A stretch of DNA of 64,000 nucleotides, taken from NCBI RefSeq assembly GCF_036227405.1, contig NZ_CP109473.1, forward strand, positions 8,184,001 to 8,248,000. The letters are read 5' to 3'. Positions 47,234-60,654 of this stretch are shown piece after piece. The number at the start of each line of letters is the position of its first letter. Position 1 is the first letter of the stretch. Position numbers and translations under genes: made by a program. This DNA comes from Streptomyces sp. NBC_01460 (lineage in GTDB: Bacteria; Actinomycetota; Actinomycetes; Streptomycetales; Streptomycetaceae). Under the pieces are notes generated by a model. That model had not been told where the DNA came from and searched no databases. It was given only the letters and a program-made list of their open reading frames with translations.

Positions 47234-48373
47234 ATGTCTGTCATGCTGAGCTCAACCAGGACCCGGGCCGCCCTCCGTACCTCGGCGCGCGTCTCGGTCG
47301 AGTTGCTCCTCGTTCTTGTCATGGCTGCGACGGCCATGTGGCTTCTGGGCCGCATGTGGTCGGTCGTCTGGCCCCTCATCGTCGGCCTGCTGCTCACCAC
47401 CCTGACCTGGCCCGCAGCGCGCTACCTGCGTCGGCGGGGCTGGCCCCCGGCCCTCGCGGCCTCGGTCGTGACCGTGCTGTTCCTCCTGGTCGCGGGGGGA
47501 GTCGTGGCGCTGATCGCGGTGCCGGTCGCCTCCCAGTCGGGGGAGCTGGGCGACGGTGTGGTCGAAGGCATCCAGAAGCTGCGCGAATGGGCTTCGGGGC
47601 CGCCGCTCAACATCGGTGACGACCAGATCAACGGGGCTTTCGATTCCGCGACCGCCCGCATCCAGGACAGCGTCGGCAGTATGGTCACCACGGTCGTCAC
47701 GGGCGTGAGCACCGTGGTCAACGGTGTGGTCACCGCCGTCCTGGCGCTCTTCCTGATGTTCTTCATGCTCAAGGACGGCCCCCGTTTCCTGCCCTGGCTC
47801 GAACGTCAGCTGCCCGGACGCCTGGCCACCGACGTTCCGACCGTGGCCGCGCGCGGCTGGACGACCCTGGGTGAGTTCGTGCGTTCCCAGGCATACGTCG
47901 GCCTCCTCGACGCGGTCCTCATCGGCATCGGCCTGTGGGTCGTCGGAGTGCCGCTGGTGCTTCCGCTGGCGGTCCTCACGTTCGTCTCCGCGTTCGTGCC
48001 GATCGTCGGAGCCCTGTTCGCCGGCTTCGTCGCGGTGCTGATCGCCCTGGTGTCGAACGGGCCGACCGACGCGCTGATCGTGCTGGCGATCATCATCGTG
48101 GTGCAGCAGCTCGAGGGCAATGTGTTCCAGCCCATGATCCAGAGCCGTGGGCTCGGCCTGCACGCCGCGGTCGTCCTCCTCGCGGTGACGCTGGGCGGCA
48201 GCCTCGCGGGGATCGTGGGCAGTCTCCTCGCCGTGCCCGCCGCCGCGCTGATCGCGGTGGTCTGGAACTACGTGCGCGAGCAGCTCAGCGAGCCGGGGCC
48301 GGAATCGGACCCGGCCGCACACGCTGACCCGGCTCCGGACACCGACCCGGAGAACCCGCGCGTCGCTGTGTGA
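47234..48373 (+). CDS. AI-2E family transporter (PerM-like)
   Basis: 379 residues with eight predicted helices. The N-terminal LIVGLLLTTLTWPAARYLRR, a long extracytoplasmic stretch, VVNGVVTAVLALFLMFFMLK, and the conserved end VQQLEGNVFQPMIQSRGLGL with LHAAVVLLAVTLGGSLAGIV match the family. Members include the AI-2 exporter TqsA and PerM-type Na+/H+ antiporters, so the cargo is not clear. A polar C-terminal tail rich in Asp/Pro ends the protein. A 17-bp hairpin follows. Confidence 0.88.
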   Translation: MSVMLSSTRTRAALRTSARVSVELLLVLVMAATAMWLLGRMWSVVWPLIVGLLLTTLTWPAARYLRRRGWPPALAASVVTVLFLLVAGGVVALIAVPVASQSGELGDGVVEGIQKLREWASGPPLNIGDDQINGAFDSATARIQDSVGSMVTTVVTGVSTVVNGVVTAVLALFLMFFMLKDGPRFLPWLERQLPGRLATDVPTVAARGWTTLGEFVRSQAYVGLLDAVLIGIGLWVVGVPLVLPLAVLTFVSAFVPIVGALFAGFVAVLIALVSNGPTDALIVLAIIIVVQQLEGNVFQPMIQSRGLGLHAAVVLLAVTLGGSLAGIVGSLLAVPAAALIAVVWNYVREQLSEPGPESDPAAHADPAPDTDPENPRVAV

Positions 48374-48405
48374 CATCGCCCGCCAGGTCCTCGGGGAGAG
48401 CCGAG

Positions 48406-48447
48406 CCTGTCCGTGATCTGCCCCGGCTCCGGCAGATCACGGACAGG
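48406..48447. terminator. 17-bp perfect hairpin between convergent genes
   Basis: The left arm 48406-48422 (CCTGTCCGTGATCTGCC) and the right arm 48431-48447 are perfect reverse complements with an 8-base loop. It lies 33 bases after the AI-2E gene stop and 26 bases beyond the stop of the convergent DUF6204 gene, serving both. Confidence 0.82.
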
Positions 48448-48472
48448 CGCCGGGCGGCGCGGCCGGCGGTGC

Positions 48473-48832
48473 TCAGGTGTACTTCCGTGCGGCTTCGCGG
48501 CGCTGCCGCTTGCCCGGAGCCGCCTGGGAGAGGTCCTCGGCCTGGGACCGGAGATTCTTGTAGCCGTAACGGCGCTGCGCCAGCCACGCCTTCGCCGCTT
48601 CCTCGGCCCGCTCGGTCGCCTCGAGGATGTCCTCCTCTTCCTCCCCGGAGTCCTGGAAGCGGAAGGTGAAGGCGGATCGTGCGGCGATGTCGTAGCTGAG
48701 GTGTCCTTCGGGGGTGAACGCGGCGCGCAGCACGTCGTGCTCCGCGGCCCGGGCCAGGAGCTCGGCGCGCTGGTCGGTGGTGAGCCCGTCGAAGACACCG
48801 CGGACAGTGATACGGAACGTACGCGTACTCAT
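48473..48832 (-). CDS. DUF6204 protein
   Basis: 119 residues: STRTFRITVRGVFDGLTTDQ, RAELLARAAEHDVLRAAFTP, GHLSYDIAARSAFTFRFQDS. A Glu-rich helix and a basic C-terminus follow (YKNLRSQAEDLSQAAPGKRQ). This is the pattern of the small DUF6204 family, widespread in Streptomyces, with a ferredoxin-like strand-helix layout and no known role. Single gene ending at a shared terminator. Confidence 0.8.
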   Translation of the reverse strand: MSTRTFRITVRGVFDGLTTDQRAELLARAAEHDVLRAAFTPEGHLSYDIAARSAFTFRFQDSGEEEEDILEATERAEEAAKAWLAQRRYGYKNLRSQAEDLSQAAPGKRQRREAARKYT

Positions 48833-48876
48833 CCCAGGACCCTAGCCAGCGGGTGCGGCAGGAATCCACCGGGTTT

Positions 48877-48910
48877 CCGGCGACGCGGGGCTCGGGCCCC
48901 GCGTCGCCGG
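48877..48910 (-). terminator. 15-bp hairpin after the glutaredoxin-like gene
   Basis: CCGGCGACGCGGGGC (48877-48891) and GCCCCGCGTCGCCGG (48896-48910) form a perfect stem with TCGG loop, 32 bases beyond the minus-strand stop at 48942. Confidence 0.75.
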
Positions 48911-48941
48911 TTCGAGGCCCCGGGGCCGGGTGCCCCGTCGG

Positions 48942-49376
48942 TCACCTCGGTGCGAGCTGTGCGCGCACCCACGCGGGATCGGGATTGACGTGCGGCACGC
49001 CCGCCACGACGACGGTCGGCACGGTCTCGTCGCCGTCGTTGGCCGCCCTTACCACCGAGGCGCCGGCCGGATCGCGCCAGATGTTCACCCAGTGCACCCG
49101 TCGGGCCTTGCGGCCCAGACGGAACCGGAGGCGCATGCAGAACGCGCAGCCCGGCCGCCAGTAGACGACCGGCCGGCCGTCGACCGCGCTACGGCCCTGC
49201 GCCTCCTCGGCGCCGATCGACCGCGGGAACGCCAGCGGCGAATACATCCCTGCGAGCACGACGAACCCCAGCAGGAGCGCGACGGCGGTGCCGGACGGCC
49301 CTCCGGTGAACAGCGGTGCCGCGACGAGTGCGCCGCAGAGTACGAACAGCATCGGCAGCATCCAGGCGCGCATCAT
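48942..49376 (-). CDS. Membrane-anchored glutaredoxin/mycoredoxin-like protein
   Basis: 144 residues. Two N-terminal helices (MLPMLFVLCGALVAAPLFTG and GTAVALLLGFVVLAGMYSPL) precede a thioredoxin-fold domain with the redox motif VVYWRPGCAFCMRLRFRLGR (CxFC-type, like the mycoredoxin CPYC class). It ends with the cis-Pro segment GDETVPTVVVAGVPHVNPDP. It would reduce disulfides or mycothiol mixed disulfides near the membrane. ATG at 49376 (MMRAWML). Alone, with a hairpin downstream. Confidence 0.87.
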   Translation of the reverse strand: MMRAWMLPMLFVLCGALVAAPLFTGGPSGTAVALLLGFVVLAGMYSPLAFPRSIGAEEAQGRSAVDGRPVVYWRPGCAFCMRLRFRLGRKARRVHWVNIWRDPAGASVVRAANDGDETVPTVVVAGVPHVNPDPAWVRAQLAPR

Positions 49377-49412
49377 GAGGACGCATGCTAGCGGTGGCCC
49401 GCGCGCCATGGC

Positions 49413-49448
49413 CCGGTGCCCCGGGCGGATGGGACCCGGGGGCACCGG
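49413..49448 (-). terminator. Hairpin after the DUF1684 gene
   Basis: CCGGTGCCCCGGG (49413-49425) pairs with CCCGGGGGCACCGG (49435-49448), one base bulged, 13 bases beyond the stop at 49462. It ends the cysteine-synthase-type operon. Confidence 0.65.
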
Positions 49449-49461
49449 ACCACGGCGGCCC

Positions 49462-50283
49462 TCACCCGTGCCCGCCGCGCTCCAGGGGGATCTTCTCGCC
49501 GGTCTCGATCGCGACCGGCAGCCGGTTCTCCGCCGGAGGCAGCGGGCAGGTCGCCAGATCCGTATAGGCGCAGGGCAGGTTGGCGGCGCGGTTGAAGTCG
49601 AGGATCACCCCGCCCTCCGCGTCGGGAGGACCGATCTGCAGGGAGCGGTTCGCCGCGTACGTGGTCACGCCTGAGGTTGTGTCCGTGAACAGCACCGTCA
49701 GGCTGCCGGGGCGTCCGCCGTTGAACGCCGTGAGCCGGTGCACCGTGCCGTCCAGTTCGAACTCGACCTGTCCGGGGGAGTCGTAGACGTGCTCCAGGCC
49801 CTCGACCGCGGCCCCGACGGTCACCGCGCGCGGGTGGTCGAAGGGGAGGAACCGGCCGGTACGGACCCAGCGGGGGTCGGGTGCGTAGGCAGGGGTCCGG
49901 GTGAATCCGGCCCGCAGTGCGTTCCCGGGATGGCGGGGGCGCAGGATGTCGTGCCCACAGCGCTTGGCGACCTCGATGACCGCGTCGCCGAAGCCGGGGT
50001 AGAGGCTGTCCCTCTCGCCGATGACACCGAACGCGTACCGGCCCCTGACCACCGTGCCGTCGACGGTCAGTTCCTCGCCCTCCGCGAGCTCGACCACCAC
50101 GCCCTCCGGCGTGCTCGACCAGGCACCCGGGGCGTCCTCGAAGCGGGTCGGTTCGGCGTTCAGCCAGTGCAGACTCGTGATCGCGAGGAACCCGTGCGGG
50201 CCGGCGAGGACCTCCTCGTGTTCGCGGTGCCACTGCTCCCAGTCCCGGACGAAAGCCGCCCGGTCGATGTCCTGGACCGTCAT
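49462..50283 (-). CDS. DUF1684 protein
   Basis: 273 residues of the DUF1684 family. The opening FVRDWEQWHREHEEVLAGPH and FLAITSLHWLNAEPTRFEDA are conserved. The C-terminal half carries LTVLFTDTTSGVTTYAANRS, VILDFNRAANLPCAYTDLAT and CPLPPAENRLPVAIETGEK. The NLPCAYxxxATCPLPPxEN motif is the family signature. The function is not known. It follows the acetyltransferase gene by 43 bases and the PLP enzyme gene, so it probably belongs to one sulfur-controlled operon. Confidence 0.9.
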   Translation of the reverse strand: MTVQDIDRAAFVRDWEQWHREHEEVLAGPHGFLAITSLHWLNAEPTRFEDAPGAWSSTPEGVVVELAEGEELTVDGTVVRGRYAFGVIGERDSLYPGFGDAVIEVAKRCGHDILRPRHPGNALRAGFTRTPAYAPDPRWVRTGRFLPFDHPRAVTVGAAVEGLEHVYDSPGQVEFELDGTVHRLTAFNGGRPGSLTVLFTDTTSGVTTYAANRSLQIGPPDAEGGVILDFNRAANLPCAYTDLATCPLPPAENRLPVAIETGEKIPLERGGHG

Positions 50284-50326
50284 GTTCGCTCCCTGGTGTG
50301 GTGTGGTGCTCGTGGGTGGGGGCCGT

Positions 50327-50920
50327 TCACAGGTGCTTGCCGTAGCAGACGCTGAACGGGTCGGTGTCGTAGGGCGGGTAGCACGCGACGCGGTGCCAGC
50401 CCTGCCGTTCGTAGAGCCCCATGGCCTCCGGCTGCAGCTTTCCGGTCTGTAGGGAGAGCCGGGTCACGCCGAGGGCCCAGGCGCTGTCCTCCACGGCGTC
50501 GAGGGCGGCCCTGGCCAAGCCGCGCCCGCGGTGCTCCTCATGTACGTAGACGCGTTTGACCTCGTACCGGTCCTCGGTGCCGGCCTCGTGGAGCAGTCTC
50601 AGGGAAGCCGTCGCCAGCGGTGCGTCTCCCCCGTAGGCGATCCAGGTGACGACGATCTCCTCCGCGGCCGGCGGCCCGGGACGCCGGCCGGCGCGCTCGG
50701 CGTCGAACGGCGCGTATCGGGGCCGCAGTTCGGCGTCCATCCGGGTCCGCAGGGCGAGCGCGTCGGGATGGTCCCAGCCGGTCGACGCCCAGCGTACGGA
50801 GTCGTCCCCGCGGCTCGCTGCGTCGGGACGGGTGACGCCGGTGATCCCATCCCTGCGGTCAGGGCCGGTACTCCCGCGCGGAGTCGGGAAGAGGGCGGCC
50901 CGGGCGTGCGAGGGGGTCAT
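50327..50920 (-). CDS. GNAT-family N-acetyltransferase
   Basis: 197 residues. The first ~45 are polar and variable. The GNAT core follows: EEIVVTWIAYGGDAPLATAS, YEVKRVYVHEEHRGRGLARA (acetyl-CoA pyrophosphate loop RGRGLA) and LGVTRLSLQTGKLQPEAMGL with YERQGWHRV. Substrate unknown. In this operon, acetylation of a thiol or amino compound is conceivable but is only inference. ATG 50920 is preferred over 50938 because GGAAGG lies ten bases ahead of it. Confidence 0.87.
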   Translation of the reverse strand: MTPSHARAALFPTPRGSTGPDRRDGITGVTRPDAASRGDDSVRWASTGWDHPDALALRTRMDAELRPRYAPFDAERAGRRPGPPAAEEIVVTWIAYGGDAPLATASLRLLHEAGTEDRYEVKRVYVHEEHRGRGLARAALDAVEDSAWALGVTRLSLQTGKLQPEAMGLYERQGWHRVACYPPYDTDPFSVCYGKHL

Positions 50921-50979
50921 GGTGGGGGTGCCTTCCATGCGATGCGAGGTGGTGCAGCCGGTGCCGGTTCCGGCGACGT

Positions 50980-52020
50980 TCACGGGTGGGTGCGCGGCAG
51001 CGCGGGGGCGGCGTCCGGGTGGGGGAGCCCGGAGGGAACCTCGTCCAGGAAGCCGAGCCGGCCGAGCCATGCGTCGTCGAAGACCTTGGAGAGATAGTTG
51101 CGGCCGGAGTCCGGCAGCATGACCACGACGAGGTCGTCCGGATCCAGACGGGCCGCCACACGCAGTGCGGCGGCCACCGCGGTCCCCGCGGAGCCGCCGA
51201 CCAGCAGCCCCTCCTCCCGCGCCAGGCGCCGTGCGGTCAGCAGCGAGTCACGGTCGCTGATCCGCTCGAACCGGTCCACGACCTCCGGCTGGTAGGACCG
51301 CGGCCACGTGTCGACCACCGTCTCGGGGTGGCGGTAACGGCCGATGCTCTCCACGGAGTACGGGCTCCCGTCGCCTCCGGAGTAGAGCGAGGCCTCCGGG
51401 TCCGCGCCGACGACGGTCACCCGGCCGCCGCTCACGTCCTTGAGGTAGGCGCCGGTCCCGGTGATGGTGCCGCCGGTGCCGATGCCCGACACCAGGTGGG
51501 TGACCCGCCCGTCGGTCTGGCGCCAGATCTCCGGCCCCGTGGTCCGGTAGTGGGCCTGTGGATTGGCCGGGTTGTCGTACTGGTCGGCCAGCCAGCCGCC
51601 CGGCGTCTCCGTGGCGACACGGGCGGCCACGGAGTGCACGTGGTCGGGGTGTTCGCGCGGCACATCGCTCGGGCAGACGATGACCTCGGCACCGTAGGCG
51701 CGCAGCACGGCGATCTTCTCCGTGCTGCTCTTGTCCGGGATCGCGAAGACGCAGCGGTAGCCGCGCTGTGCCGCGACCATGGCCAGGCCGACCCCCGTGT
51801 TGCCCGACGTCCCCTCGACGACGGTGCCACCGGGGAGCAGCAGCCCGGCCTCCTCGGCCGCCTCCACCATCGAGAGAGCGATGCGGTCCTTCACGCTGCC
51901 ACCTGGATTGACGTACTCCAGTTTCACGTAGACGGGTGCGGGAGCTCCGCCGGTGACCCGGTTGAGCCGCACCAGCGGAGTGTTGCCGACCACGTCGGTC
52001 AGGGATCCGTGGACGTCCAA
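50980..52020 (-). CDS. Cysteine synthase / cystathionine beta-synthase-type PLP enzyme
   Basis: 346 residues of the beta-family PLP enzymes. Schiff-base Lys in NPGGSVKDRIALSMVEAAEE, substrate loop VVEGTSGNTGVGLAMVAAQR, phosphate-binding loop SGIGTGGTITGTGAYLKD. The late GGSAGTAVAAALRVAARLD holds the Ser for the pyridine nitrogen. Without CBS tails it could make cysteine from O-acetylserine and sulfide, or cystathionine. TTG is the start (52020), supported by AAGGAG seven bases upstream. A leader peptide (52221-52364) precedes it and fits control by cysteine supply. Confidence 0.9.
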   Translation of the reverse strand: MDVHGSLTDVVGNTPLVRLNRVTGGAPAPVYVKLEYVNPGGSVKDRIALSMVEAAEEAGLLLPGGTVVEGTSGNTGVGLAMVAAQRGYRCVFAIPDKSSTEKIAVLRAYGAEVIVCPSDVPREHPDHVHSVAARVATETPGGWLADQYDNPANPQAHYRTTGPEIWRQTDGRVTHLVSGIGTGGTITGTGAYLKDVSGGRVTVVGADPEASLYSGGDGSPYSVESIGRYRHPETVVDTWPRSYQPEVVDRFERISDRDSLLTARRLAREEGLLVGGSAGTAVAAALRVAARLDPDDLVVVMLPDSGRNYLSKVFDDAWLGRLGFLDEVPSGLPHPDAAPALPRTHP

Positions 52021-52220
52021 TGCAGTGCTCCTTGCGTCGAGTCCGGCCTTGCCCGTCGATCCGGATCATCCGCCCTGCCGCGGCGCGGGGACCGGACATC
52101 AGTGATTCTCCGCAAGAGGGGAGGAGGTCGGCCACGGCGGTGGGTTACCTGGGCGGACAGGGCCGCGTACGGGAGCGGGCCAGGCCGTCACACGGGCCGG
52201 TGGTCAAGCGGTGAGGGACG

Positions 52221-52364
52221 TCAGGCCTGACAGATCGCGCTGGAGAAGCGGTGCAGATCGATGTGCCGGCGGGCGGCGAAGCGCGGACGGAAGAATCCCG
52301 AGCGGCGTGTACCAGCGGCCCGGCCCGGAGGCGTGGCCCCGGCGGCATTCGGCTGGTACGGCAT
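52221..52364 (-). CDS. Putative leader peptide of the cysteine synthase-type operon
   Basis: A short frame ends with AARRHIDLHRFSSAICQA and a TGA. The motif RRHIDLHRFSSAIC matches the tiny leader peptides that Streptomyces carries upstream of sulfur genes. Two others lie at 52644 and 58521 in this window. The only normal start is ATG at 52364, making 47 residues, longer than usual. Its ribosome site (GGAAGGGA) is 11 bases away. The peptide ends 200 bases before the TTG of the PLP enzyme gene. Ribosome stalling or progress at the Ser-Ser-Ala-Ile-Cys end could regulate the operon. That is inference. Confidence 0.7.
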   Translation of the reverse strand: MPYQPNAAGATPPGRAAGTRRSGFFRPRFAARRHIDLHRFSSAICQA

Positions 52365-52430
52365 GAGTGGCACGGTCCCTTCCGGCACGTGGCATCGCCC
52401 CGGAGGGACGATGCCACGCAACGTACCAGC
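52352..52430. repeat. Nested inverted repeats around the leader-peptide start
   Basis: An outer perfect repeat GCTGGTACG (52352-52360)/CGTACCAGC (52422-52430) encloses an inner one GTGGCATCG (52389-52397)/CGATGCCAC (52409-52417). The whole 79-base element contains the ATG (52364) of the minus-strand leader peptide, so in RNA it could fold over the start. Confidence 0.6.
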
Positions 52431-52643
52431 TCGAACACCGGTAGGAGAAGGAAGCTTCGGCGCGATGAACGGTGCTCCCCGGGGCGGAGCGCCCGCAGCG
52501 CTCCCGAGGCGTGGGAGGTGTCCGGGCGGCGAACGGGGCGGCATTGTTCAACGGGTGGCGAACGGTTAACGTGAGCAGCGATCGTACGAGTCAGCAGTCG
52601 TCCTGGACCAGCTGGCCGATCCGACGGCTGTGAGGTGACCGGC

Positions 52644-52784
52644 ATGCAGGCGCAATCCTCCGACGAGCGCGACGACCTCGTGCCGCACCGCGCCGGATCT
52701 GCCGCCCTGCTGGTCGCCCGACGCCACGTCGACCTGCTCCGGGTGAGCAGCGCGCTGTGTACAGGGACGTCTCCGCGCCGCTGA
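52644..52784 (+). CDS. Putative leader peptide of the flavin monooxygenase operon
   Basis: 46 residues from ATG at 52644, with GAGGTG six bases upstream. The C-terminal part reads LLVARRHVDLLRVSSALCTG, then TSPRR and TGA. RRHVDLLRVSSALC is the conserved core of actinobacterial leader peptides linked to sulfur genes. An in-frame GTG at 52680 would give 34 residues, closer to the usual size. It lies 385 bases before the LLM gene at 53170 and is divergent from the minus-strand leader at 52221-52364. The Cys codon sits near the end, as expected for sensing of cysteine supply. Confidence 0.75.
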   Translation: MQAQSSDERDDLVPHRAGSAALLVARRHVDLLRVSSALCTGTSPRR

Positions 52785-53169
52785 GCGCGTCCGCACCGCA
52801 CGTCCCGGCCGGCGCCGATGGCCAGGCGTCATCCGCGCGCCCCGAGCGCTTCCTTCCTCCAGCGGCTGTCGCGACACCTGTGCCCGGCGGCCCTGTGTGC
52901 GGCTGCCCGCACGGCTGACCCGCGAGCCACAGGACTGAACCCGGCCACCGGCGCCCCGATGCGCTCGACGGGCGCCACGCCCGGCGACCCGGTGACCCCG
53001 TGAGCGACCTGATCGCCCGGCAGGCCGCGGCCGGCCGGGACCGCGGGCCGGGTTCAGACCCCGGCACCGGGGCGGGCGCGCGCCGACCTGACGCCGAGGC
53101 CGTACGCCCACTCCTCGCCCCTCGTCAACTCGCTTCTCCAGCACTCCACTTCGACCGGAGGCACCTCAC
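52785..53169 (+). other. Long untranslated region after the leader peptide
   Basis: 385 bases between the leader peptide and the first flavin monooxygenase gene. It contains small inverted repeats: TGTCGCGACA (52867-52876), GGCGCCC/GGGCGCC (52950-52956/52970-52976) and CCGCGG pairs near 53028-53046. They could be alternative hairpins for attenuation. A 61-codon frame (ATG 52818) has several Cys codons but no good support as a gene. Confidence 0.45.
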
Positions 53170-54267
53170 ATGACCGACCGCAGAACCGGGCTGTCCGGCC
53201 TGCATCTCGCCCTGGAAGCCGACGGCGACGGCGCGCACCCCGCGGCCTGGCGCCACTCGGGGCGCCCACCAGGCGCCGTGCTGACCTCGGGCGCCCTGCG
53301 GGACGTGGTCTCCGGGGCCGAGGACGCGGGCTTCGCCCTCGTCACCTTCGCCGACTCGCCCCTGCCGCCGGACGCGGGTACAGGCGTCGCCGGACGCATG
53401 GACGCCGGAACCCGTGCGGCGTACGTGGCCCCCCTGACCGACCGGATCGGCCTCGCACCCACCCTGCACGTCGCGACCACGGAACCGTTCCATCTGGCCA
53501 CGCAGCTGGCGAGCCTGGACCACGCCTCGCACGGAAGGGCCGGCTGGGTGGTCGGAGCGGCTGCGGGCGAGGACGAACTCGCCACCGTCGGGGGAGCGGC
53601 GCTCCCCGCCGCCGCGCTGGCCCGCGAGGCGGCCGACGTCATCGACGCCGCCCGCGCCCTGTGGGACTCGTGGGACGACGACGCCGTCATCAAGGATGTG
53701 GCGACCGGCAGGTTCCTGGACTCGCGGCGGGTGCACCACATCGACTTCGAGGGTGCCTCCTTCACCGTCAAAGGGCCCTTGATCACGCCGCGTCCGCCCC
53801 AGGGCCAGGTGGTGGTCCTCGCCTCCGACGCCCTGGCCGTCGACGCGCGGGCCGACGTCGTGCTCGTCGGGCGACCCGGTCTCGCGGCGATCGCGGCGAG
53901 ATCGCGCGCGGCCAGGGAGGCGGGCGCGCCCCTGGTCTTCGCCGAAGTGGAGGTCGTCCTTGACGCGGAGGTCCCGGCCGCCGACCGGCTCGCGGAGCTG
54001 GACGGAGCCGCCGCCCGGCCGGAATCCGGACGCCTGCGTCACACCGGCTCCCCGGAGTCCCTGCTGGAACTGCTCCGCGAACTGGCCGAATCGGTCGACG
54101 GCGTCAGGCTGCACCCGGCCGTACTCGCCGTGGACCTCCCCGTCCTGGCCCGGCAGGTCCTCCCGAAGGTCGGCGGGGCGCCCCGGGCCGGCGGAACCCT
54201 GCGCGAGACGCTCGGCCTTCCCCGTCCCGCCGGCCGATTCGCCGCCGCGGCGGCCACGAACGCCTGA
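53170..54267 (+). CDS. LLM-class flavin-dependent monooxygenase
   Basis: 365 residues of the luciferase-like (bacterial luciferase/SsuD) barrel: LHLALEADGDGAHPAAWRHS, LTDRIGLAPTLHVATTEPFH, ATQLASLDHASHGRAGWVVG and VIDAARALWDSWDDDAVIKD. It is somewhat shorter in the insertion regions than NtaA/DszA enzymes. Such proteins oxidise organosulfur or amine compounds with FMNH2 from a separate reductase. ATG at 53170 follows CGGAGG. It starts 385 bases after a leader peptide, and the second monooxygenase follows after 10 bases. Confidence 0.87.
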   Translation: MTDRRTGLSGLHLALEADGDGAHPAAWRHSGRPPGAVLTSGALRDVVSGAEDAGFALVTFADSPLPPDAGTGVAGRMDAGTRAAYVAPLTDRIGLAPTLHVATTEPFHLATQLASLDHASHGRAGWVVGAAAGEDELATVGGAALPAAALAREAADVIDAARALWDSWDDDAVIKDVATGRFLDSRRVHHIDFEGASFTVKGPLITPRPPQGQVVVLASDALAVDARADVVLVGRPGLAAIAARSRAAREAGAPLVFAEVEVVLDAEVPAADRLAELDGAAARPESGRLRHTGSPESLLELLRELAESVDGVRLHPAVLAVDLPVLARQVLPKVGGAPRAGGTLRETLGLPRPAGRFAAAAATNA

Positions 54268-54277
54268 GGTGAGTGCC

Positions 54278-55633
54278 ATGACCGAACAGAATCCCCGTCC
54301 GCAGATCCACCTCGGTGTCTTCTTCACCGGCGTCGGGCCCCAGCTGATCTGGACCGACCCCGACGCGCCGTCGCACACGGAGTTCGAGACGTTCGCCGAG
54401 ACCGCGCGGATCCTGGAACGCGGCTTGTTCGACGCGTTCTTCCTCGGTGAAGGGCTGCGCGTACGGGAGAACCGCGGCAAGGTCTTCGATCTCGACATCG
54501 CCGGCCGGCCCGACGCGATCACCCAGCTGTCCGCGCTCGCCGCGGTGACCGAACGCATCGGCCTCGTCGCGACCCAGAACACCACCTACAACTATCCGGC
54601 CGACCTGGCCCGACGGCTGGCCGGCCTGGACCTGCTGTCCGACGGCCGGGCGGGCTGGAACATCGTCACCACCGACAACGCCTGGACCGGGGAGAACTTC
54701 CGCCACGGGGGCTGGCTGGAGCACGAGCGCCGCTACGAGCGCGCGGCACAGTTCGTCGAAGCGGCCCAGGAGCTGTGGGCGTCCTGGGCCCCGGACACCG
54801 TCGCGCCCGACGGCCGTGCCGCGAACTGGGCGCGGCCCGGCGCGATCCGTCCGGTCCACCGGGACGGCGACCTGGTGCGACTGCGCGCGACCGCCACCCT
54901 GCCGGGCAGCCGCCAGGGCCGTCCCGTGCTGTTCCAGGCCGGTGACTCGGACGGCGGCCGTGAGCTCGCCGCCCGCCACGCCGACGTGGTCTTCTCCGCC
55001 AACACCGAGTACGGCAAGGCCGTCGCCTACGCCGCGGATCTGCGTGACCGGCTGGCCCGCCACGGCCGGACGCCCGATTCGCTGCGGATCCTGCCGGGCG
55101 CGAGCGTCGTCCTCGGCGACACGGCTGCCGACGCTGAGGAGAAAGCGCGCTGGGTGCGCCGCGAGCAGGTCAACGGGCCCCGCGCGATCGCCTACCTCGA
55201 GCAGTACTGGGGCACCGACCTGTCCGCCTACGACCCGGACGGTCCGCTGCCCGACATCGAGCCCGGTGCCGAAGAGCTCGATCCGTCCCGAGGCACGATC
55301 TCCATCGAGCTCCGCAGCGGGAAGGCGGCCCTGATCCGGAAGTGGCGGGAGCTGGCGGAGGAACGCTCCCTCTCCATAAGGGAACTGGTGCTGGAGGTGT
55401 CCCCGGGGCACCCGTCCTTCGTCGGCACGCCCGCCGCGATCGCCGACGAGTGGACGCGCTATGTCAGCACCCGCGCCGTCGACGGCTTCAACCTCCTGCC
55501 GCACCTGCTTCCGGCCTCTCTCACGGACATCGTCGACAAGCTCGTCCCCGAACTCCAGGAGCGCGGCGTCCACCGCACCGCGTACCAGGGCACCACCCTG
55601 CGCGAACACCTGGACCTGCCCCCTCTGGGGTGA
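54278..55633 (+). CDS. NtaA/DmoA-family FMN-dependent monooxygenase
   Basis: 451 residues. PQIHLGVFFTGVGPQLIWTD, LFDAFFLGEGLRVRENRGKV and LAAVTERIGLVATQNTTYNY show the luciferase-like core. DGRAGWNIVTTDNAWTGENF carries the conserved NxVTT segment, and GRPVLFQAGDSDGGRELAAR with HADVVFSANTEYGKA gives the phosphate-binding region. This is the NtaA/SnaA/DszA (DmoA) type that oxygenates compounds such as nitrilotriacetate, dibenzothiophene or dimethylsulfide. The leader peptide and the ssuD neighbour point to sulfur scavenging. A partner flavin reductase is not seen in the window. Confidence 0.9.
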   Translation: MTEQNPRPQIHLGVFFTGVGPQLIWTDPDAPSHTEFETFAETARILERGLFDAFFLGEGLRVRENRGKVFDLDIAGRPDAITQLSALAAVTERIGLVATQNTTYNYPADLARRLAGLDLLSDGRAGWNIVTTDNAWTGENFRHGGWLEHERRYERAAQFVEAAQELWASWAPDTVAPDGRAANWARPGAIRPVHRDGDLVRLRATATLPGSRQGRPVLFQAGDSDGGRELAARHADVVFSANTEYGKAVAYAADLRDRLARHGRTPDSLRILPGASVVLGDTAADAEEKARWVRREQVNGPRAIAYLEQYWGTDLSAYDPDGPLPDIEPGAEELDPSRGTISIELRSGKAALIRKWRELAEERSLSIRELVLEVSPGHPSFVGTPAAIADEWTRYVSTRAVDGFNLLPHLLPASLTDIVDKLVPELQERGVHRTAYQGTTLREHLDLPPLG

Positions 55634-55727
55634 GGGTGCCCCTGTCGTACGACGGGACCGGCCCGCCGTGGAGACGACCTCCGTGGCGGTCCGGTCCCGG
55701 CCCGGTGCGTGACCGTTCATCCCTTCC

Positions 55728-57167
55728 TCAGGAGCGGGCGCTTCCCGCCCCCACCAGTGCGGAGGAGCCGTCCGGAGAAGCCGCGGCCGGGAAGGCGCGT
55801 CCCGTCGGCACGTGCTGGTCCCCGTCCCGCAGCCGGCCGGTCGCCCACACACTGACCAGCCCGGTCAGCACCAGATAGCCGCACGCCCACCAGGGGCTCC
55901 CTGTCCCGAGCGCCAGCAGCGCGGTCATGATGAGCGGAGTGATACCGGACGCGAAGATGCCGGACATCTGATAGACGAACGACATGCCCGTGTACCGGAC
56001 CGGCGTCGCGAACAGGGCTGCGAACAGGGTGCCTTGGGCCCCGTAGAACGAGCCGTGCACGAGGCCCAGCGTCACGACGAGCGCCGCCGCGAAGGCCCAG
56101 GTCCCGCCGATGCCGAAGAGCCAGAAGGCGGGGAAGACCGAAACGGTGAAGGCGGCCATGCCCACGAGGTAGACCCGGCGGGCCCCGTAGCGGTCCACGG
56201 CGGATCCGGACAACGGGATCATCGCGGCCATGACGACCGCCGCCGCCGTGACCGCGAGCAGGACCGGGGTGCGGTCCAGCGCGAGCGTCCCCGTCGCGTA
56301 GGTGATGGCGAAGACGGCCCAGGTGTTGAAGGCGGCCCCCTCGCCCCACCGGGCGAGCATGCCGAGCACGACGTGTCGGCGCGCGGCCGGCTCACGCACC
56401 AGCTCCACCAGCGGCGCCGCACGCGGCAGTTCCTGGAGGCGGCGGGCGGCACGGAACGCGGGTGTCTCGTCGATCTTCAGACGGACGGTCAGCCCGACGA
56501 CGACGAGAACCAGGCTGATCAGAAAGGCGATCCGCCACCCGTGGTCGAGGAACGCCGACTCGCTGAGCACGTTGCTCAGCAGGGCGAACACCCCGGTGCC
56601 CAGCGCCAGTCCGAGGGCCAGTCCGATCTGCGGATAGCTGCCGAAGCGGCCTTTGCGTCCCGCCGGCCCGTACTCCACGGCCAGCAGCACCGCCCCGGCC
56701 CATTCCCCACCGAGCGCCACGCCCTGGGCGACGCGCAGGACCAGGAGCAGCGCGGGGGCGAGGAGTCCGACCTGCTGGTACGTGGGCAGCAGACCGATGA
56801 GGGCGGTGGAGACACCCATCAGCCCCATGGTGAAGGCCAGGGTGTGTTTACGGCCGATCCGGTCGCCGAGGTGCCCGAAGAGCAGACCGCCCACGGGCCG
56901 GGCGACGAAGCCCACCGCGAACGTCGCGAAGGACAGCATCGTGCCGACCGTGCCGTCGGCTGTGGGGAAGAACAGCTTGTTGAAGACCAGCCCGGCGGCC
57001 GTGCTGTAGAGGAAGAAGTCGTACCACTCCACCGTGGTGCCCAGCAGACTGGCGAACACCACCGTCCTCAGCCGCCGGGGAGTCGTGGCACCCGGCTCCG
57101 GTTCCGGGAGTTCCGGAGCTTCCGGGGCGTTCCGCGGTGCCTCCGAGGGCACGGGCACGGCGCTCAC
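55728..57167 (-). CDS. MFS transporter, metabolite:H+ symporter (MHS) type
   Basis: 479 residues. A polar N-terminal tail (~30) precedes twelve helices. LLGTTVEWYDFFLYSTAAGL is the signature of the MHS family (ShiA/ProP/KgtP). GGLLFGHLGDRIGRKHTLAF is the loop 2-3 motif and VAQGVALGGEWAGAVLLAVE is the helix 4 motif. Members import organic acids, osmolytes or sulfonates. GTG at 57167 overlaps the ssuD stop codon (TGA at 57164-57166), so both are cotranslated. A sulfonate importer is the natural guess from this, since no SsuABC is nearby. Confidence 0.9.
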   Translation of the reverse strand: MSAVPVPSEAPRNAPEAPELPEPEPGATTPRRLRTVVFASLLGTTVEWYDFFLYSTAAGLVFNKLFFPTADGTVGTMLSFATFAVGFVARPVGGLLFGHLGDRIGRKHTLAFTMGLMGVSTALIGLLPTYQQVGLLAPALLLVLRVAQGVALGGEWAGAVLLAVEYGPAGRKGRFGSYPQIGLALGLALGTGVFALLSNVLSESAFLDHGWRIAFLISLVLVVVGLTVRLKIDETPAFRAARRLQELPRAAPLVELVREPAARRHVVLGMLARWGEGAAFNTWAVFAITYATGTLALDRTPVLLAVTAAAVVMAAMIPLSGSAVDRYGARRVYLVGMAAFTVSVFPAFWLFGIGGTWAFAAALVVTLGLVHGSFYGAQGTLFAALFATPVRYTGMSFVYQMSGIFASGITPLIMTALLALGTGSPWWACGYLVLTGLVSVWATGRLRDGDQHVPTGRAFPAAASPDGSSALVGAGSARS

Positions 57168-58315
57168 CGGCCGGCGAACGGGACGATGCCCGCCTCGACG
57201 GGACGCGGACCGGCCGGGTGGCGCCACAGACCGCGCTTCTCCAGCAGCGGCAGCACCCCTTCACCGAACCAGTAGGCCTCCTCCAGATGCGGGACTCCGG
57301 ACAGGACGAACTCGTCGATGCCGAGCCGGTGGTACTCCTCGATGAGGTCCGCGACCTCCGTGTGGCTGCCGACCAGCGCCGTGCCCGCGCCGCCGCGGAC
57401 GAGCCCGACACCCGCCCAGAGGTTCGGGTAGATCTCCAGGTTCGTGGTGTCGCCGCTGTGGTGCAGTTCGCGCATCCGCCGCTGCCCCTCGGACTCGCTG
57501 GTCGCCAGCCCTTCCTGCACCGCCTTGACGCGCTCCGGGTCCATGGCCGCGAGCAGCCGCTCCGCCTCGGCCCAGGCCTGTGCGGAGGTGTCCCGGGTGA
57601 TGGTGTGCAGGCGGATGCCGAACCGCACGGTGCGGCCCTGCGCGGTGGCCAGCGAGCGCACCCAGTCGATCTTCTGCTTCACCTGCTGAGGCGGTTCGCC
57701 CCAGGTCAGATACACATCGGTGTACCGCGCCGCGACCTCTCCGGCGGCGGGCGACGAGCCGCCGAAGTAGATCTGCGGTGCCGGTTCGGGCAGCCGGCTC
57801 AGCCTGGCCGCCTCGACCCGCAGGTGCTCGCCGTGATGGTCGACGGTCTCGCCCGTCCAGAGCCTGCGTACGACGTCCAGGAACTCCCCGGTACGGGCGT
57901 ACCGCTGGTCCTTGTCGAGGAAGTCGCCGTACGCGCGCTGCTCCGCGGACTCGCCTCCCGTGACGACGTTGAGTAGCAGCCGCCCGTGCGACTGCCGTTG
58001 GTAGGTCGCGGCCATCTGCGCCGACAGCGTCGGGCTGATCTGGCCGGGGCGGAAGGCGACCAGGAACTTCAGCCGCTCGGTGACCTGGGTGAGCATGGCG
58101 GTCGTGATCCAGGCGTCCTCGCACCACGCGCCCGTGGGGGTGAGGGCACCGACGAAGCCGAGCTGCTCCGCCGTGCGGGCTATCTGGCCGAGGTACTCGA
58201 CGGAGGCCGGACGGTCCCCGCCGGCGGCGCCGGGCGTCGAACCGTGGCCACCGCCCACGACGTGCCGGCTGTCACCGGTCGTGGGCAGGAACCAATGGAA
58301 GGTCAGGGCAGACAT
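57164..58315 (-). CDS. ssuD: FMNH2-dependent alkanesulfonate monooxygenase
   Basis: 383 residues closely following E. coli SsuD: LTFHWFLPTTGDSRHVVGGG, TPTGAWCEDAWITTAMLTQV, KFLVAFRPGQISPTLSAQMA, LLLNVVTGGESAEQRAYGDF and YFGGSSPAAGEVAARY. LYLTWGEPPQQVKQKIDWV, RFGIRLHTITRD and NLWAGVGLVRGGAGTALVG also match. It releases sulfite from alkanesulfonates using reduced FMN. ATG at 58315 is preferred because GGAG lies six bases ahead. Transcribed after a leader peptide (58521-58601) and overlapping an MHS transporter gene. Confidence 0.93.
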   Translation of the reverse strand: MSALTFHWFLPTTGDSRHVVGGGHGSTPGAAGGDRPASVEYLGQIARTAEQLGFVGALTPTGAWCEDAWITTAMLTQVTERLKFLVAFRPGQISPTLSAQMAATYQRQSHGRLLLNVVTGGESAEQRAYGDFLDKDQRYARTGEFLDVVRRLWTGETVDHHGEHLRVEAARLSRLPEPAPQIYFGGSSPAAGEVAARYTDVYLTWGEPPQQVKQKIDWVRSLATAQGRTVRFGIRLHTITRDTSAQAWAEAERLLAAMDPERVKAVQEGLATSESEGQRRMRELHHSGDTTNLEIYPNLWAGVGLVRGGAGTALVGSHTEVADLIEEYHRLGIDEFVLSGVPHLEEAYWFGEGVLPLLEKRGLWRHPAGPRPVEAGIVPFAGR

Positions 58316-58520
58316 GGGTGCTCCGGAGGTGGGTGCGGAGGATGACGTGCCGGCCACGCCCTTCAGGGCATGGCCCAGCGGCCCGACGGCGTACGTTCGG
58401 GAACGCGTCGAGGCACGCGAGACACGAGGCGAGAACGGCGGCGATGCGCGGCGCCGTGGGAATGCGGATGCGTCGGAAGAGGGAGGGCGCAGGCCCTACG
58501 GCCCCGGGGCCCGACAGGCG

Positions 58521-58601
58521 TCAGCGGCGACAGGTCGCGCTGGACTGGCGACACAGGTCGACGTGCAGGCGCGCCACGAGGAGGTCGGCAGCAGCGGTCA
58601 T
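58521..58601 (-). CDS. Putative leader peptide of the ssuD operon
   Basis: 26 residues from ATG at 58601, ending ARLHVDLCRQSSATCRR and TGA. LHVDLCRQSSATC keeps the HVDLxRxSSAxC core of the other two leaders at 52221 and 52644, with an extra Cys. An in-frame ATG at 58610 would add three residues. No clear ribosome site is visible, so it may be read from a leaderless message. It ends 206 bases before ssuD. This size and position are typical of actinobacterial leader peptides for sulfur genes. Confidence 0.75.
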   Translation of the reverse strand: MTAAADLLVARLHVDLCRQSSATCRR

Positions 58602-58743
58602 GTCAGGCATTGTGGGGGAGAGGCACCGCCCGGCTCAAGTACGGACCGGCCACTGTTTCAGCAGGTGAGACCGGAAACGGTGGCATCCGCATCCACGGCA
58701 TGCCGCACCCCGGAACCCGGCCCGGGTTCCGGGGTGCGCGGAC

Positions 58744-58785
58744 GCCGGCCGTGGCTCCCGGTGGAATCAGGGAGCCACGGCCGGC
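58744..58785 (-). terminator. 16-bp hairpin after the CocE-type hydrolase gene
   Basis: GCCGGCCGTGGCTCCC (58744-58759) and its exact reverse complement (58770-58785) with a 10-base loop lie 13 bases beyond the stop codon at 58798. Confidence 0.82.
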
Positions 58786-58797
58786 GCGGGACGTGGG

Positions 58798-60654
58798 TCA
58801 GAGGCGCCCGCCGGGGACCACCGTGAACGTGCCGGGGCCGGCCGGCAGGTCCACCGTGTACTGGCTCAGGTAGGTGTCCAGATACGGAGACCGGGCACCA
58901 CCGGTCGCGACGTCGTCGGACGGGTCGTCCAGGGCCAGCCGGAGTCGCGCCCCCTTGACCTCGATCGTCTCGCCGGAAGGTGTGTCGCGCCAGGAGCCGG
59001 TCCGGATGGAACCGACCTCCACGGCCAGCACGTGCCCGGCCCCCAGGGTCCAGTCGGTCGCCTTGAGGTCGACGGTGAGCCTGCCCGTGGTCAGCAGCGA
59101 GACCTGCTCGTCGAACATGACGGCGGTGCCGTCCGGGGCGACGTCGTACAGCTTGAGCATCACATTGCCCTCACCCTCGGCGCTCAGGCTCACCTGCGGG
59201 GTCCCTGTGACCCGCACGGCCTTCCTGAGCGCCTCGGACCACACGAAGAAGCTCGACGTGACCTGGCCGGTCTCCTGGAGCCGTGCCAGCCCGCCGGCCA
59301 GGCCTCTCGGTGCCGTCGGGTCCGTCCTCGGCGCGTTCTCCATGTCCCACGCGCCGGAGCTCCCCGAGTGGCCCCGGGGCGCCGGTCCGCCTGACGGGCC
59401 CAGGGCCGCGATCCCGGAGAGGCCGCCGTCGTCCACGTACGAGCCGCCGCCGAGGGGCAGCGTGACGTGCCGCTCGACGACCGGCCAGGTCCGCTGGGCC
59501 CGCCACGCGCCGGTGGAGTCCTCCACGGAGTACGCGGGATAGCGTGCCGCCGGCCTGATGCCCTTGAGGTACTGGTCGTAGAAGGAGAGGGTCTCGTCGT
59601 ACCAGCCCTCACGCCCCATGGACAGACGGCCGTCGGACGTGCGGTCACCTCCGCGTACGTGCTCCCACTGTCCGACCCAGCCGCGCTCCGGGCCCTTGTG
59701 GTTGTCGAGGTACTCCTGCATCTCCTCGGGCTTGGTGTTGTTCTCGATGAACCCCTGGGTGACGAAGAGCGGGGTGTCGGTGCCCCTGGCCGCGTTCGCG
59801 AGGTCGCGGGACACCCAGTGAGGGTCGTCCTGGTCGGCGATCCGGTACCCGGCCGAGTTCTGCGTCAGGCACTCGGGATGGCCTTCCTCGTAACGGGAGT
59901 TGGCCAGGTAGTGCGCGTCGTCGTCCGGCAGCTGGCGGAGCGTCGCTATGGAGTTGTAGGCGTTGGCGGTCCCGGAGACGTTCGGGCGGGGCACGCCGTT
60001 CGAATAGATGTACTGGTACATGTCCCAGACGGGCTCCTGCGCGACGACGGCCTTGAGCGCCCGCTGGTCCAGGTTGTTGCCGATGAGGCCCGTCAGCGCG
60101 TCGTAGGACTTGCCGTAGAGACCGACCGAGCCCGTGGACCAGGGCTGTCTCGCGGCCCAGTCGACGGCCGCCTTCACGTCCGCCTGTTCACCCGGCCCGC
60201 CCCAGTCGAGGCAGCCGGTCGAGCCGCCGAAGCCGCGCAGGTCCACCATCACGAAGGCGTAGCCCTCGTCGAAGAGGTCGGTGCCCTCGATGAAGTCCTG
60301 GAAGCGGGTGGAGGGGCCGGTGTGCGTCCAGCCCTCGGCGCCGGACTGCCCGGAGTGACCGAAGTACGGCCCGACCGACAGGATGACGGGCACCTCGGCC
60401 TTCTCCGGCAGCCCTTCGGGCAGCAGGACGTCCGCGTGCAGTTCGGTACCGGAGTTGTCCGAGGACGGGAAGTAGTGCTGCGTCCAGCGCGCCCCCTCCG
60501 GCACGCGGTCGTTCTCCTGATGGGTGACGGGGCCGGCCGGCCGTTGCTCCGCGGCCGGCCCGGAGGCGGCGGCGGGGCCGGCGAGTACGCCGGTCAGAGC
60601 GAGGCTCGTGACGAGTGCAGAGGCGGCCCATCCGGCCGTGCGACGTGCTCTCAC
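58798..60654 (-). CDS. Secreted CocE/NonD-family hydrolase (X-Pro dipeptidyl-peptidase-like)
   Basis: 618 residues. A signal peptide (WAASALVTSLALTGVLAGPA to ASG) is followed by an alpha/beta hydrolase domain: VPVILSVGPYFGHSGQSGAE, AFVMVDLRGFGGSTGCLDWG, and the nucleophile elbow SVGLYGKSYDALTGLIGNN (GKSYD, matching GxSY). The C-terminal jelly-roll domain of the X-Pro/CocE group is present (SSFFVWSEALRKAVRVTGTP, VMLKLYDVAPDGTAVMFDEQ). It would cleave peptides after proline or esters outside the cell. GTG at 60654 has GGGAG six bases upstream. Single gene. Confidence 0.9.
   Translation of the reverse strand: MRARRTAGWAASALVTSLALTGVLAGPAAASGPAAEQRPAGPVTHQENDRVPEGARWTQHYFPSSDNSGTELHADVLLPEGLPEKAEVPVILSVGPYFGHSGQSGAEGWTHTGPSTRFQDFIEGTDLFDEGYAFVMVDLRGFGGSTGCLDWGGPGEQADVKAAVDWAARQPWSTGSVGLYGKSYDALTGLIGNNLDQRALKAVVAQEPVWDMYQYIYSNGVPRPNVSGTANAYNSIATLRQLPDDDAHYLANSRYEEGHPECLTQNSAGYRIADQDDPHWVSRDLANAARGTDTPLFVTQGFIENNTKPEEMQEYLDNHKGPERGWVGQWEHVRGGDRTSDGRLSMGREGWYDETLSFYDQYLKGIRPAARYPAYSVEDSTGAWRAQRTWPVVERHVTLPLGGGSYVDDGGLSGIAALGPSGGPAPRGHSGSSGAWDMENAPRTDPTAPRGLAGGLARLQETGQVTSSFFVWSEALRKAVRVTGTPQVSLSAEGEGNVMLKLYDVAPDGTAVMFDEQVSLLTTGRLTVDLKATDWTLGAGHVLAVEVGSIRTGSWRDTPSGETIEVKGARLRLALDDPSDDVATGGARSPYLDTYLSQYTVDLPAGPGTFTVVPGGRL

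What the first reader, a model, noticed from the sequence alone, without database searches (positions are those of the whole stretch)
52221..58601. Three copies of one sulfur-linked leader peptide motif control three neighbouring operons
Tiny ORFs at 52221-52364 (minus), 52644-52784 (plus) and 58521-58601 (minus) end with RRHIDLHRFSSAIC, RRHVDLLRVSSALC and LHVDLCRQSSATC. Each lies 200-385 bases before a sulfur-related unit: the cysteine-synthase type operon, two flavin monooxygenases, and ssuD with an MHS transporter. The shared core and the Cys codon near the end suggest one attenuation mechanism used three times within 6.5 kb. Such peptides are known in actinobacterial genomes, but their mechanism is not settled to my knowledge.
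Basis: partly seen in the sequence, partly recalled or inferred. Interest (0 to 1): 0.75.

Follow-up and report, generated by a model that had tools for sequence, protein, structure and literature searches.

The report
Cysteine-sensing leader peptides before sulfur genes
Three short upstream reading frames ending in a conserved cysteine belong to a catalogued but functionally unproven family of leader peptides that sit before sulfur genes in actinobacteria; the unexpected part is that this one cysteine is nearly always written with the rare codon UGU at a fixed distance from the conserved motif, which points to where a ribosome would stall.

Summary
The three leaders are real. Each scores over the cut-off of NCBIfam NF042934 'putative leader peptide'. 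The genome has 16 (E <= 0.003); 61 of 61 sampled genomes of the genus, own included, have some; the genes behind them are largely sulfur genes. So the kind is known.

New to me: the conserved Cys is TGT in 147 of 149 collected motifs (81 of 83 distinct 12-mers), though TGT is 9% of Cys codons in those loci and other Cys codons in the same frames are 99 TGC: 23 TGT. The homologous Cys of mycobacterial-type poly-Cys leaders is TGT in 23 of 23; the one before it is TGC in 21 of 22. Motif-to-Cys spacing is fixed, Cys-to-stop is not. Most leaders look leaderless. RNA after the leader stop is C-rich and G-poor; intrinsic terminators are rare (2 of 149).

Best reading: a ribosome stalls at UGU when cysteine is short, helped by the nascent VDL-R segment, and this blocks Rho-type termination. 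Stalling and Rho are inferred. Leaders 1 and 2 are less certain than leader 3.

The parts
52221..52364 (-). leader 1 ORF (47 aa from ATG 52364; start codon uncertain), NF042934 27.3 bits
52230..52232 (-). leader 1 conserved Cys codon, TGT
52101..52220 (-). first 120 nt after leader 1 stop: C minus G = 0.20 and 0.23 in the two 60-nt halves
50980..52020 (-). CBS/cysteine-synthase-like PLP enzyme (PF00291; TIGR01137 437 bits, below its 510 cut-off)
52644..52784 (+). leader 2 ORF (46 aa from ATG 52644; start codon uncertain), NF042934 34.5 bits
52758..52760 (+). leader 2 conserved Cys codon, TGT
52785..53169 (+). 385-nt spacer of leader 2: C minus G = 0.13, 0.08, 0.15 in the first three 60-nt pieces
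53170..54267 (+). luciferase-like monooxygenase (PF00296)
54281..55633 (+). NtaA/DmoA-family FMN-dependent monooxygenase (TIGR03860, 395 bits, cut-off 279.7)
58609..58614 (-). CACAAT, -10-like box 8-13 nt before ATG 58601 (TTGAGC at 58633-58638, 18 nt further upstream)
   Evidence: sequence; class-wide pattern; the consensus scan did not list it
58521..58601 (-). leader 3 ORF (26 aa), NF042934 34.4 bits; 72 of 81 nt identical in the orthologous place L307
58530..58532 (-). leader 3 conserved Cys codon, TGT
58401..58520 (-). first 120 nt after leader 3 stop: C minus G = 0.15 and 0.18
57164..58357 (-). SsuD-like alkanesulfonate monooxygenase (TIGR03565 451.8 bits, below its 518 cut-off)
55728..57227 (-). 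MHS-type metabolite:H+ symporter (TIGR00883 365.9 bits, below its 443 cut-off)

Best explanation
The three ORFs are single-Cys leader peptides of the NF042934 family that tune sulfur-acquisition genes to cysteine supply. Mechanism I commit to: (1) the leader is the first thing translated on the transcript, mostly from a leaderless AUG; (2) when Cys-tRNA is short, the ribosome pauses with the invariant UGU codon in the A site, at a fixed distance (10 codons) from the V of the VDL-x-R segment, which then lies in the exit tunnel and helps the pause; UGU rather than UGC is kept because it is read by the same GCA anticodon through a weaker wobble pair, or because the base itself matters; (3) when Cys is plentiful the ribosome runs on to the stop codon 0-14 codons later and leaves, exposing a C-rich, G-poor stretch that starts at the stop and suits Rho, so transcription ends early; the paused ribosome prevents this and the genes are expressed. 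Shown by sequence: family membership, sulfur genes, invariant UGU, fixed spacing, -10 box position, C-over-G spacer, lack of intrinsic terminators. Inferred: stalling, help by the nascent chain, Rho, and the direction of the response.
For: NF042934 hits over cut-off. Sulfur genes behind the family: sulfite/nitrite reductase 34, cysteine synthase 19, sulfatase 15, SDF symporter 12, flavin reductase 10, luciferase-like monooxygenases 8+6+3, ROK 4, TauE 3, cysteine dioxygenase 2, acyl-CoA dehydrogenase-like 2, of 136 with a downstream ORF out of 149 (clusters; one representative per cluster scanned, the cysteine synthase cluster through the window's own protein). Cys codon TGT 147 of 149, 81 of 83 distinct 12-mers; background 9% TGT in 607 ORFs; other Cys codons in the same frames 23 TGT of 122; variable Cys at motif position 5 is 4 TGT of 44 (Fisher p 1.7e-48, not corrected for kinship). 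Matched C/T third positions, one per distinct 12-mer: H 17 T of 83, D 24 T of 83, first variable Cys 3 T of 21, conserved Cys 81 T of 83. Partly overlapping HMM-found set: 48 of 49 TGT. Mycobacterial-type poly-Cys leaders: 23 of 23 TGT at the homologous Cys, 21 of 22 TGC at the one before, 23 of 23 TGC at the earlier Cys. Spacing in 60 loci fetched by gene, not by leader: V-to-Cys distance 10 in 20 leaders, no other distance in more than 5, antisense 0. Spacer C minus G 0.202 (147) against 0.039 (237 upstream windows) and 0.039 (374 windows after other stops); 0.189 for one per 12-mer. [TC]ANNNT box 12-14 nt before the leader ATG in 76 of 129 against at most 15 in other three-offset windows; SD-like 4-mer in 15 of 129. 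tRNA-Cys: two genes, both GCA, among 67 tRNA matches, one of which ARAGORN did not call.
Against: No expression, ribosome or termination data. C-rich RNA is only suggestive of Rho. In the mycobacterial-type set other Cys positions (8, 11, 12 after V) are also mostly TGT (19 of 23, 20 of 22, 19 of 22), and the conserved U is predicted to pair 118-129 nt downstream with probability >= 0.65 in 14 of 27, so an RNA role of that base is possible there. Exceptions with TGC: L136 (doubtful member), L141, L186. Leader 1 is near the cut-off. 28 of 30 ssuD-like loci and 12 of 30 monooxygenase loci examined have no such leader within 600 nt upstream, and only the window's own CBS-like gene of 30 has one. 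Leaders 1 and 2 lack the usual -10 box.
Confidence: 0.5

Rival explanations
1. Translation attenuation as reported for M. smegmatis poly-Cys sORFs: ribosome position on the leader opens or hides the ribosome-binding site of the next gene, without transcription termination.
For: The family is homologous to the mycobacterial Ms5788A leaders: MLTKRRAVDLCRVAG... against MKRQADLTKRRAVDLCRVAA.... Citing passages call the mycobacterial case translation attenuation or regulation of downstream translation. In 14 of 27 mycobacterial-type leaders the conserved U pairs 118-129 nt downstream, near the AGGAG of the next gene in the printed alignment.
Against: Leader-to-SD duplexes are not specific: own pairs -15.76 against -15.47 (sd 0.28) for mismatched pairs in 136 leaders, sulfite reductase set -14.20 against -14.43; mycobacterial-type set -18.02 against -17.20 (sd 0.50), a weak lean. 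Spacers range widely in length.
Confidence: 0.25
2. Classical attenuator with competing hairpins and an intrinsic terminator.
For: Other Streptomyces amino-acid leaders (trp, ilv, leuS) are described that way (passages of PMC1262725 and PMC8079986).
Against: Terminator-like element in 2 of 149 spacers, 0 in the two window stretches scanned.
Confidence: 0.05
3. The UGU codon reflects an RNA or protein-binding constraint on that base and has nothing to do with decoding.
For: The base is fixed while the amino acid would allow C; the conserved U has a predicted partner in many leaders (A in 72, G in 21 of 147 at p > 0.3), and in 14 of 27 mycobacterial-type leaders a well-placed one.
Against: In the 147 leaders partners lie at scattered positions; mean pairing 0.59 is not above neighbouring third bases (0.42-0.82); replacing U by C makes predicted folds weaker in 33% and stronger in 30%.
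Confidence: 0.2
4. Arrest peptide that senses free cysteine or another sulfur compound in the exit tunnel (TnaC-like), rather than uncharged tRNA.
For: Amino acids R..VDL.R are conserved while their third bases vary, spacing to the Cys is fixed. With UGU in the A site, D lies 8 and R 12 residues before the P site; from memory TnaC has D16 and W12 at those distances from P24.
Against: TnaC stalls at its stop codon (recalled); here Cys-to-stop distance varies 0-14. Such a sensor should raise expression with the ligand, which fits acquisition genes badly.
Confidence: 0.12

Closest known systems
NCBIfam NF042934 cis_reg_atten, 'putative leader peptide'
   Same: All three leaders score over its cut-off
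   Different: Nothing in sequence; the family name states no tested mechanism, codon or spacer
Mycobacterial poly-Cys leaderless sORF attenuators (NCBIfam NF042933 Ms5788A, NF042936 Ms4527A; Canestrari et al. 2020, not read)
   Same: Homologous core (RR.VDL.R), homologous UGU Cys at the same place, sulfur genes, apparently leaderless
   Different: One conserved Cys instead of a run; window leaders do not reach the NF042933/NF042936 cut-offs
cys leader peptides of Mycobacterium, P. acnes and B. longum without terminators (Seliverstov et al. 2005, PMC1262725, passages)
   Same: Leader before cys genes, no conserved terminator, Rho suggested as one possibility
   Different: Those have runs of Cys codons; the passages seen do not describe this Streptomyces-type motif
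TnaC of the E. coli tna operon (recalled)
   Same: Short leader, Rho-dependent control, spacing of an Asp and a basic/aromatic residue to the P site
   Different: Stalls at the stop codon with free Trp; here the fixed point is a sense codon

Membership tests
NF042934 putative leader peptide | score over the curated cut-off of 27 bits | tested here: met
   27.3, 34.5, 34.4 bits; 27.0, 34.6, 32.8 in the whole-genome search
NF042934 putative leader peptide | short ORF just upstream of a gene on the same strand | tested here: met
   gaps 200, 385, 163
Ms5788A / Ms4527A poly-Cys attenuators | score over cut-off of 45 bits | tested here: not met
   best 27.7 (Ms4527A) and 12.5 (Ms5788A)
Ms5788A / Ms4527A poly-Cys attenuators | run of Cys codons | tested here: not met
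   one conserved Cys; leader 3 has a second one at motif position 5
Ms5788A / Ms4527A poly-Cys attenuators | leaderless transcript | tested here: inconclusive
   leader 3 has the -10-like box in register; leaders 1 and 2 do not; no transcript data
Ms5788A / Ms4527A poly-Cys attenuators | expression responds to cysteine through the Cys codons | not testable with these tools
   needs reporters
Classical hairpin attenuator | intrinsic terminator between leader and gene | tested here: not met
   0 in window stretches, 2 of 149 in the family
Rho-dependent attenuator | C-over-G unstructured rut region after the leader | tested here: inconclusive
   C minus G raised in all three window spacers (0.20, 0.13, 0.15) and in the family; no Rho data
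Arrest peptide | residues conserved at fixed distance from the stall codon | tested here: met
   spacing test; residue conservation with free third bases
Arrest peptide | ribosome arrest shown | not testable with these tools
   needs toeprinting or profiling

The most novel reading that the evidence does not exclude
NF042934/Ms5788A leaders are one ancient class of nascent-chain-assisted codon sensors: the ribosome is set up by the RR.VDL.R segment to pause at one particular sense codon, and selection fixes the synonymous codon UGU there although UGC is read by the same anticodon. Wobble decoding itself would then be the tuned sensor, and the poly-Cys run of mycobacteria a later elaboration around the same codon.
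Probability: 0.35. Interest if true: 0.78.

Novelty: new member of a known kind. Interest (0 to 1): 0.5.

Why it matters
The leader family is widespread (175 of 246 genomes of the class, 73 of 103 genera, at E <= 0.003) yet, in the papers I could search, has no worked-out mechanism outside mycobacteria. A synonymous codon fixed at one position across the class gives a one-base experiment (UGU to UGC) that separates codon-level sensing from a mere Cys requirement, and would mark a whole sulfur regulon, including genes of unknown function, in one genome.

Tried and rejected
Rejected: intrinsic-terminator attenuation; a known riboswitch (no Rfam match in 48000-60000); leader-to-SD pairing as a general rule; an RNA partner at a constant place for the conserved U in the 147 leaders; a separate tRNA for UGU. 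A first orientation error (loci on the minus strand are not turned) made the printout useless for 12 of 16 loci; it was redone. The RNAalifold structures were not tested against a control and are not used. No structure prediction or protein-database search was run. Choices that shape the counts: the 149 motifs come from 109 pattern loci, 27 genus HMM loci and 13 of the 16 own loci (the other three, all TGT, miss the regular expression); 8 of 163 raw matches without a stop within 15 codons and 6 duplicates were dropped. In one search, 31 poly-Cys loci were given, 4 gave no match to the expression and duplicates were removed, leaving 23. In one search, 53 loci were given, 2 gave none, 49 distinct remained.

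Literature on the novelty of the UGU point: (listings). Passages only were read of PMC13236596, PMC8079986, PMC1262725, PMC9094748, PMC2965389, PMC9031893, PMC7790235 (67, reference-list mention). The key paper, Canestrari et al. 2020 (PMC8764745), is not held; nothing of it was seen, and it may already comment on Cys codon choice. PMC9094748 notes that the Cys codons of such sORFs lower their G/C skew.
Full report
What is there. NCBIfam NF042934, 'putative leader peptide', matches all three over its cut-off: 27.3, 34.5 and 34.4 bits against 27; Pfam has no match for them. Leader 1 is the weakest. The family is therefore already catalogued.

How common it is. The window's genome (8.8 Mb, unnamed; by its relatives I take it to be a Streptomyces) has 11 matches over the cut-off and 16 at E <= 0.003. 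Three of the 16 lie in the window. Own plus 60 other genomes of the genus: 61 of 61 have matches, 3 to 16 each, own the most; 0 of 14 control genomes. Class: 175 of 246 genomes and 73 of 103 genera; phylum sample: 15 of 198. In these large searches only part of the first-look candidates is scored per genome, so counts are lower bounds.

What it stands before. I took the first plausible ORF behind each of 149 collected leaders; 136 had one, in 29 clusters. One representative of each larger cluster was scanned: sulfite/nitrite reductase (34 members), cysteine synthase-like (19, identified through the window's own protein), sulfatase (15), sodium:dicarboxylate-type symporter (12), flavin reductase (10), luciferase-like monooxygenases (8, 6 with SfnG and SsuE domains, 3 SsuD-like), ROK (4), TauE/SafE sulfite exporter (3), cysteine dioxygenase (2), acyl-CoA dehydrogenase-like (2). 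Cluster 10 and clusters 17-28 were not scanned. In the own genome 14 of 16 have a family assignment, directly or through their cluster, among them cysteine dioxygenase, rhodanese, two sulfatases, two SsuD-like and one other monooxygenase, two PLP cysteine/cystathionine synthase-like enzymes and a sulfite-reductase-type enzyme; L004 and L009 have none.

The codon. In the 16 own leaders the conserved Cys is TGT in 16 of 16. In 149 distinct motifs it is TGT in 147, and in 81 of 83 distinct 12-residue peptides only TGT is seen. TGT is 9% of Cys codons in 607 ORFs of the same loci; other Cys codons in the same leader frames are 99 TGC to 23 TGT, and the variable Cys at motif position 5 is 40 TGC to 4 TGT. 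H and D, which have the same C/T choice and the same ancestry, vary: 17 and 24 T of 83 after reduction to one per peptide, against 81 of 83 for the Cys. An HMM-found set from class and phylum searches, partly overlapping, gives 48 of 49. So the amino acids of R..VDL.R..SA are conserved with freely changing third bases in H, D, L, R and A (V favours GTC and S favours AGC, which may be ancestry), but the Cys codon is fixed.

The mycobacterial link. NF042933 leaders of an unnamed genus that I take to be mycobacterial (58 of 60 genomes) read MLTKRRAVDLCRVAGCCCC..., and the Streptomyces-type leader before a rhodanese reads MKRQADLTKRRAVDLCRVAAMLCR.... At the homologous Cys (10 residues after V) 23 of 23 distinct poly-Cys leaders use TGT, the residue before it 21 TGC to 1 TGT, and the early Cys 23 of 23 TGC. 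Three other positions of the run are also mostly TGT (19 of 23, 20 of 22, 19 of 22), so the contrast is sharp with its neighbour but not unique within the run.

Geometry. In 60 loci fetched by the downstream gene rather than by the leader, the distance from V to a Cys in a short frame upstream is 10 in 20 cases; no other distance exceeds 5, and the antisense strand gives none. Cys to stop varies from 0 to 14 codons, most often 3 (55 of 149). The fixed point is thus the Cys codon, not the stop. With that codon in the A site the VDL-R segment is 5 to 9 residues back in the tunnel.

Promoter and spacer. Of 129 leaders with an in-frame ATG 6-40 codons before H (19 have none), 76 have [TC]ANNNT 12-14 nt before it, against at most 15 in any other three-offset window; 15 of 129 have an SD-like 4-mer. 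This fits leaderless transcripts. Leader 3 has CACAAT in that place; leaders 1 and 2 do not. From the leader stop on, C exceeds G by 0.23 in the first 20 nt, falling to 0.06 at 180 nt; over 60 nt it is 0.202 for 147 spacers against 0.039 for 237 upstream windows and 0.039 for 374 windows behind other genes, and 0.189 for one spacer per peptide. The window spacers have 0.20, 0.13 and 0.15. Terminator-like elements: 2 of 149.

Orthologues of the window units. Leader 3 is kept in the closest ssuD place (L307, protein 90% identical): 72 of 81 nt identical, while the spacer diverges. But 28 of the 30 ssuD-like loci examined lack a leader within 600 nt, and so do 12 of 30 monooxygenase loci; of 30 CBS-like loci only the window's has one upstream. 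The searches had found 62, 47 and 99 of 101 genomes with such genes; only the 30 best loci of each were read. So the leaders move between genes rather than following one gene family.

Mechanism. I commit to ribosome pausing at UGU under cysteine shortage, helped by the nascent chain, which blocks Rho-type termination in the C-rich spacer. The two tRNA-Cys genes found both have anticodon GCA (67 tRNA matches, one not called by ARAGORN), so UGU is not read by a tRNA of its own; wobble reading or a base-level role remains. Tests of a base-level role are mixed: none consistent in the 147 leaders, a possible one in 14 of 27 mycobacterial-type leaders. Leader-to-SD pairing is not specific except for a weak lean in the mycobacterial-type set.

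Known and new. Known: the family name and, for mycobacteria, Cys-responsive attenuation by poly-Cys sORFs (seen only through citing passages) and the 2005 proposal of cys leaders without terminators, possibly Rho-linked (passages). The passage of the S. lividans reannotation that lists eight leaders does not include this motif. I found no mention of a fixed UGU codon in the searches, which cover open-licence papers only and were seen as listings.

Noticed in passing
own genome C1:8282136-8282186 (L004), about 34 kb beyond the window's end: A fourth leader near this chromosome region (HVDLVRTAGALC, TGT) stands before an ORF without a Pfam match; with L009 a candidate for an unrecognised sulfur gene.
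   Followed up: partly
upstream of the sulfite-reductase leaders, e.g. L008, L119, L131: A conserved GTCC..AT....GGAC inverted repeat and TGGAC stretch 60-90 nt before the leader, possibly a regulator site in addition to the leader (alignment).
   Followed up: no
own genome L010 / L209, C1:4589201-4589260: The leader before a two-domain rhodanese is the Streptomyces-type counterpart of the mycobacterial Ms5788A poly-Cys leader, with one instead of several Cys in the run.
   Followed up: partly
own genome C1:6865445-6865517 (L421) and C1:4772954-4773027 (L409): A low-scoring tRNA-like gene called as tRNA-Asp with anticodon ATC, and a second tRNA-Trp(CCA) scoring lower than the first.
   Followed up: no
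monooxygenase relatives, e.g. L288, L291, L293-L295, L297, L302: Several relatives of the 53170-54267 protein were reported with one TGA inside the matched stretch; could be alignment into a neighbouring frame, assembly or decay.
   Followed up: no
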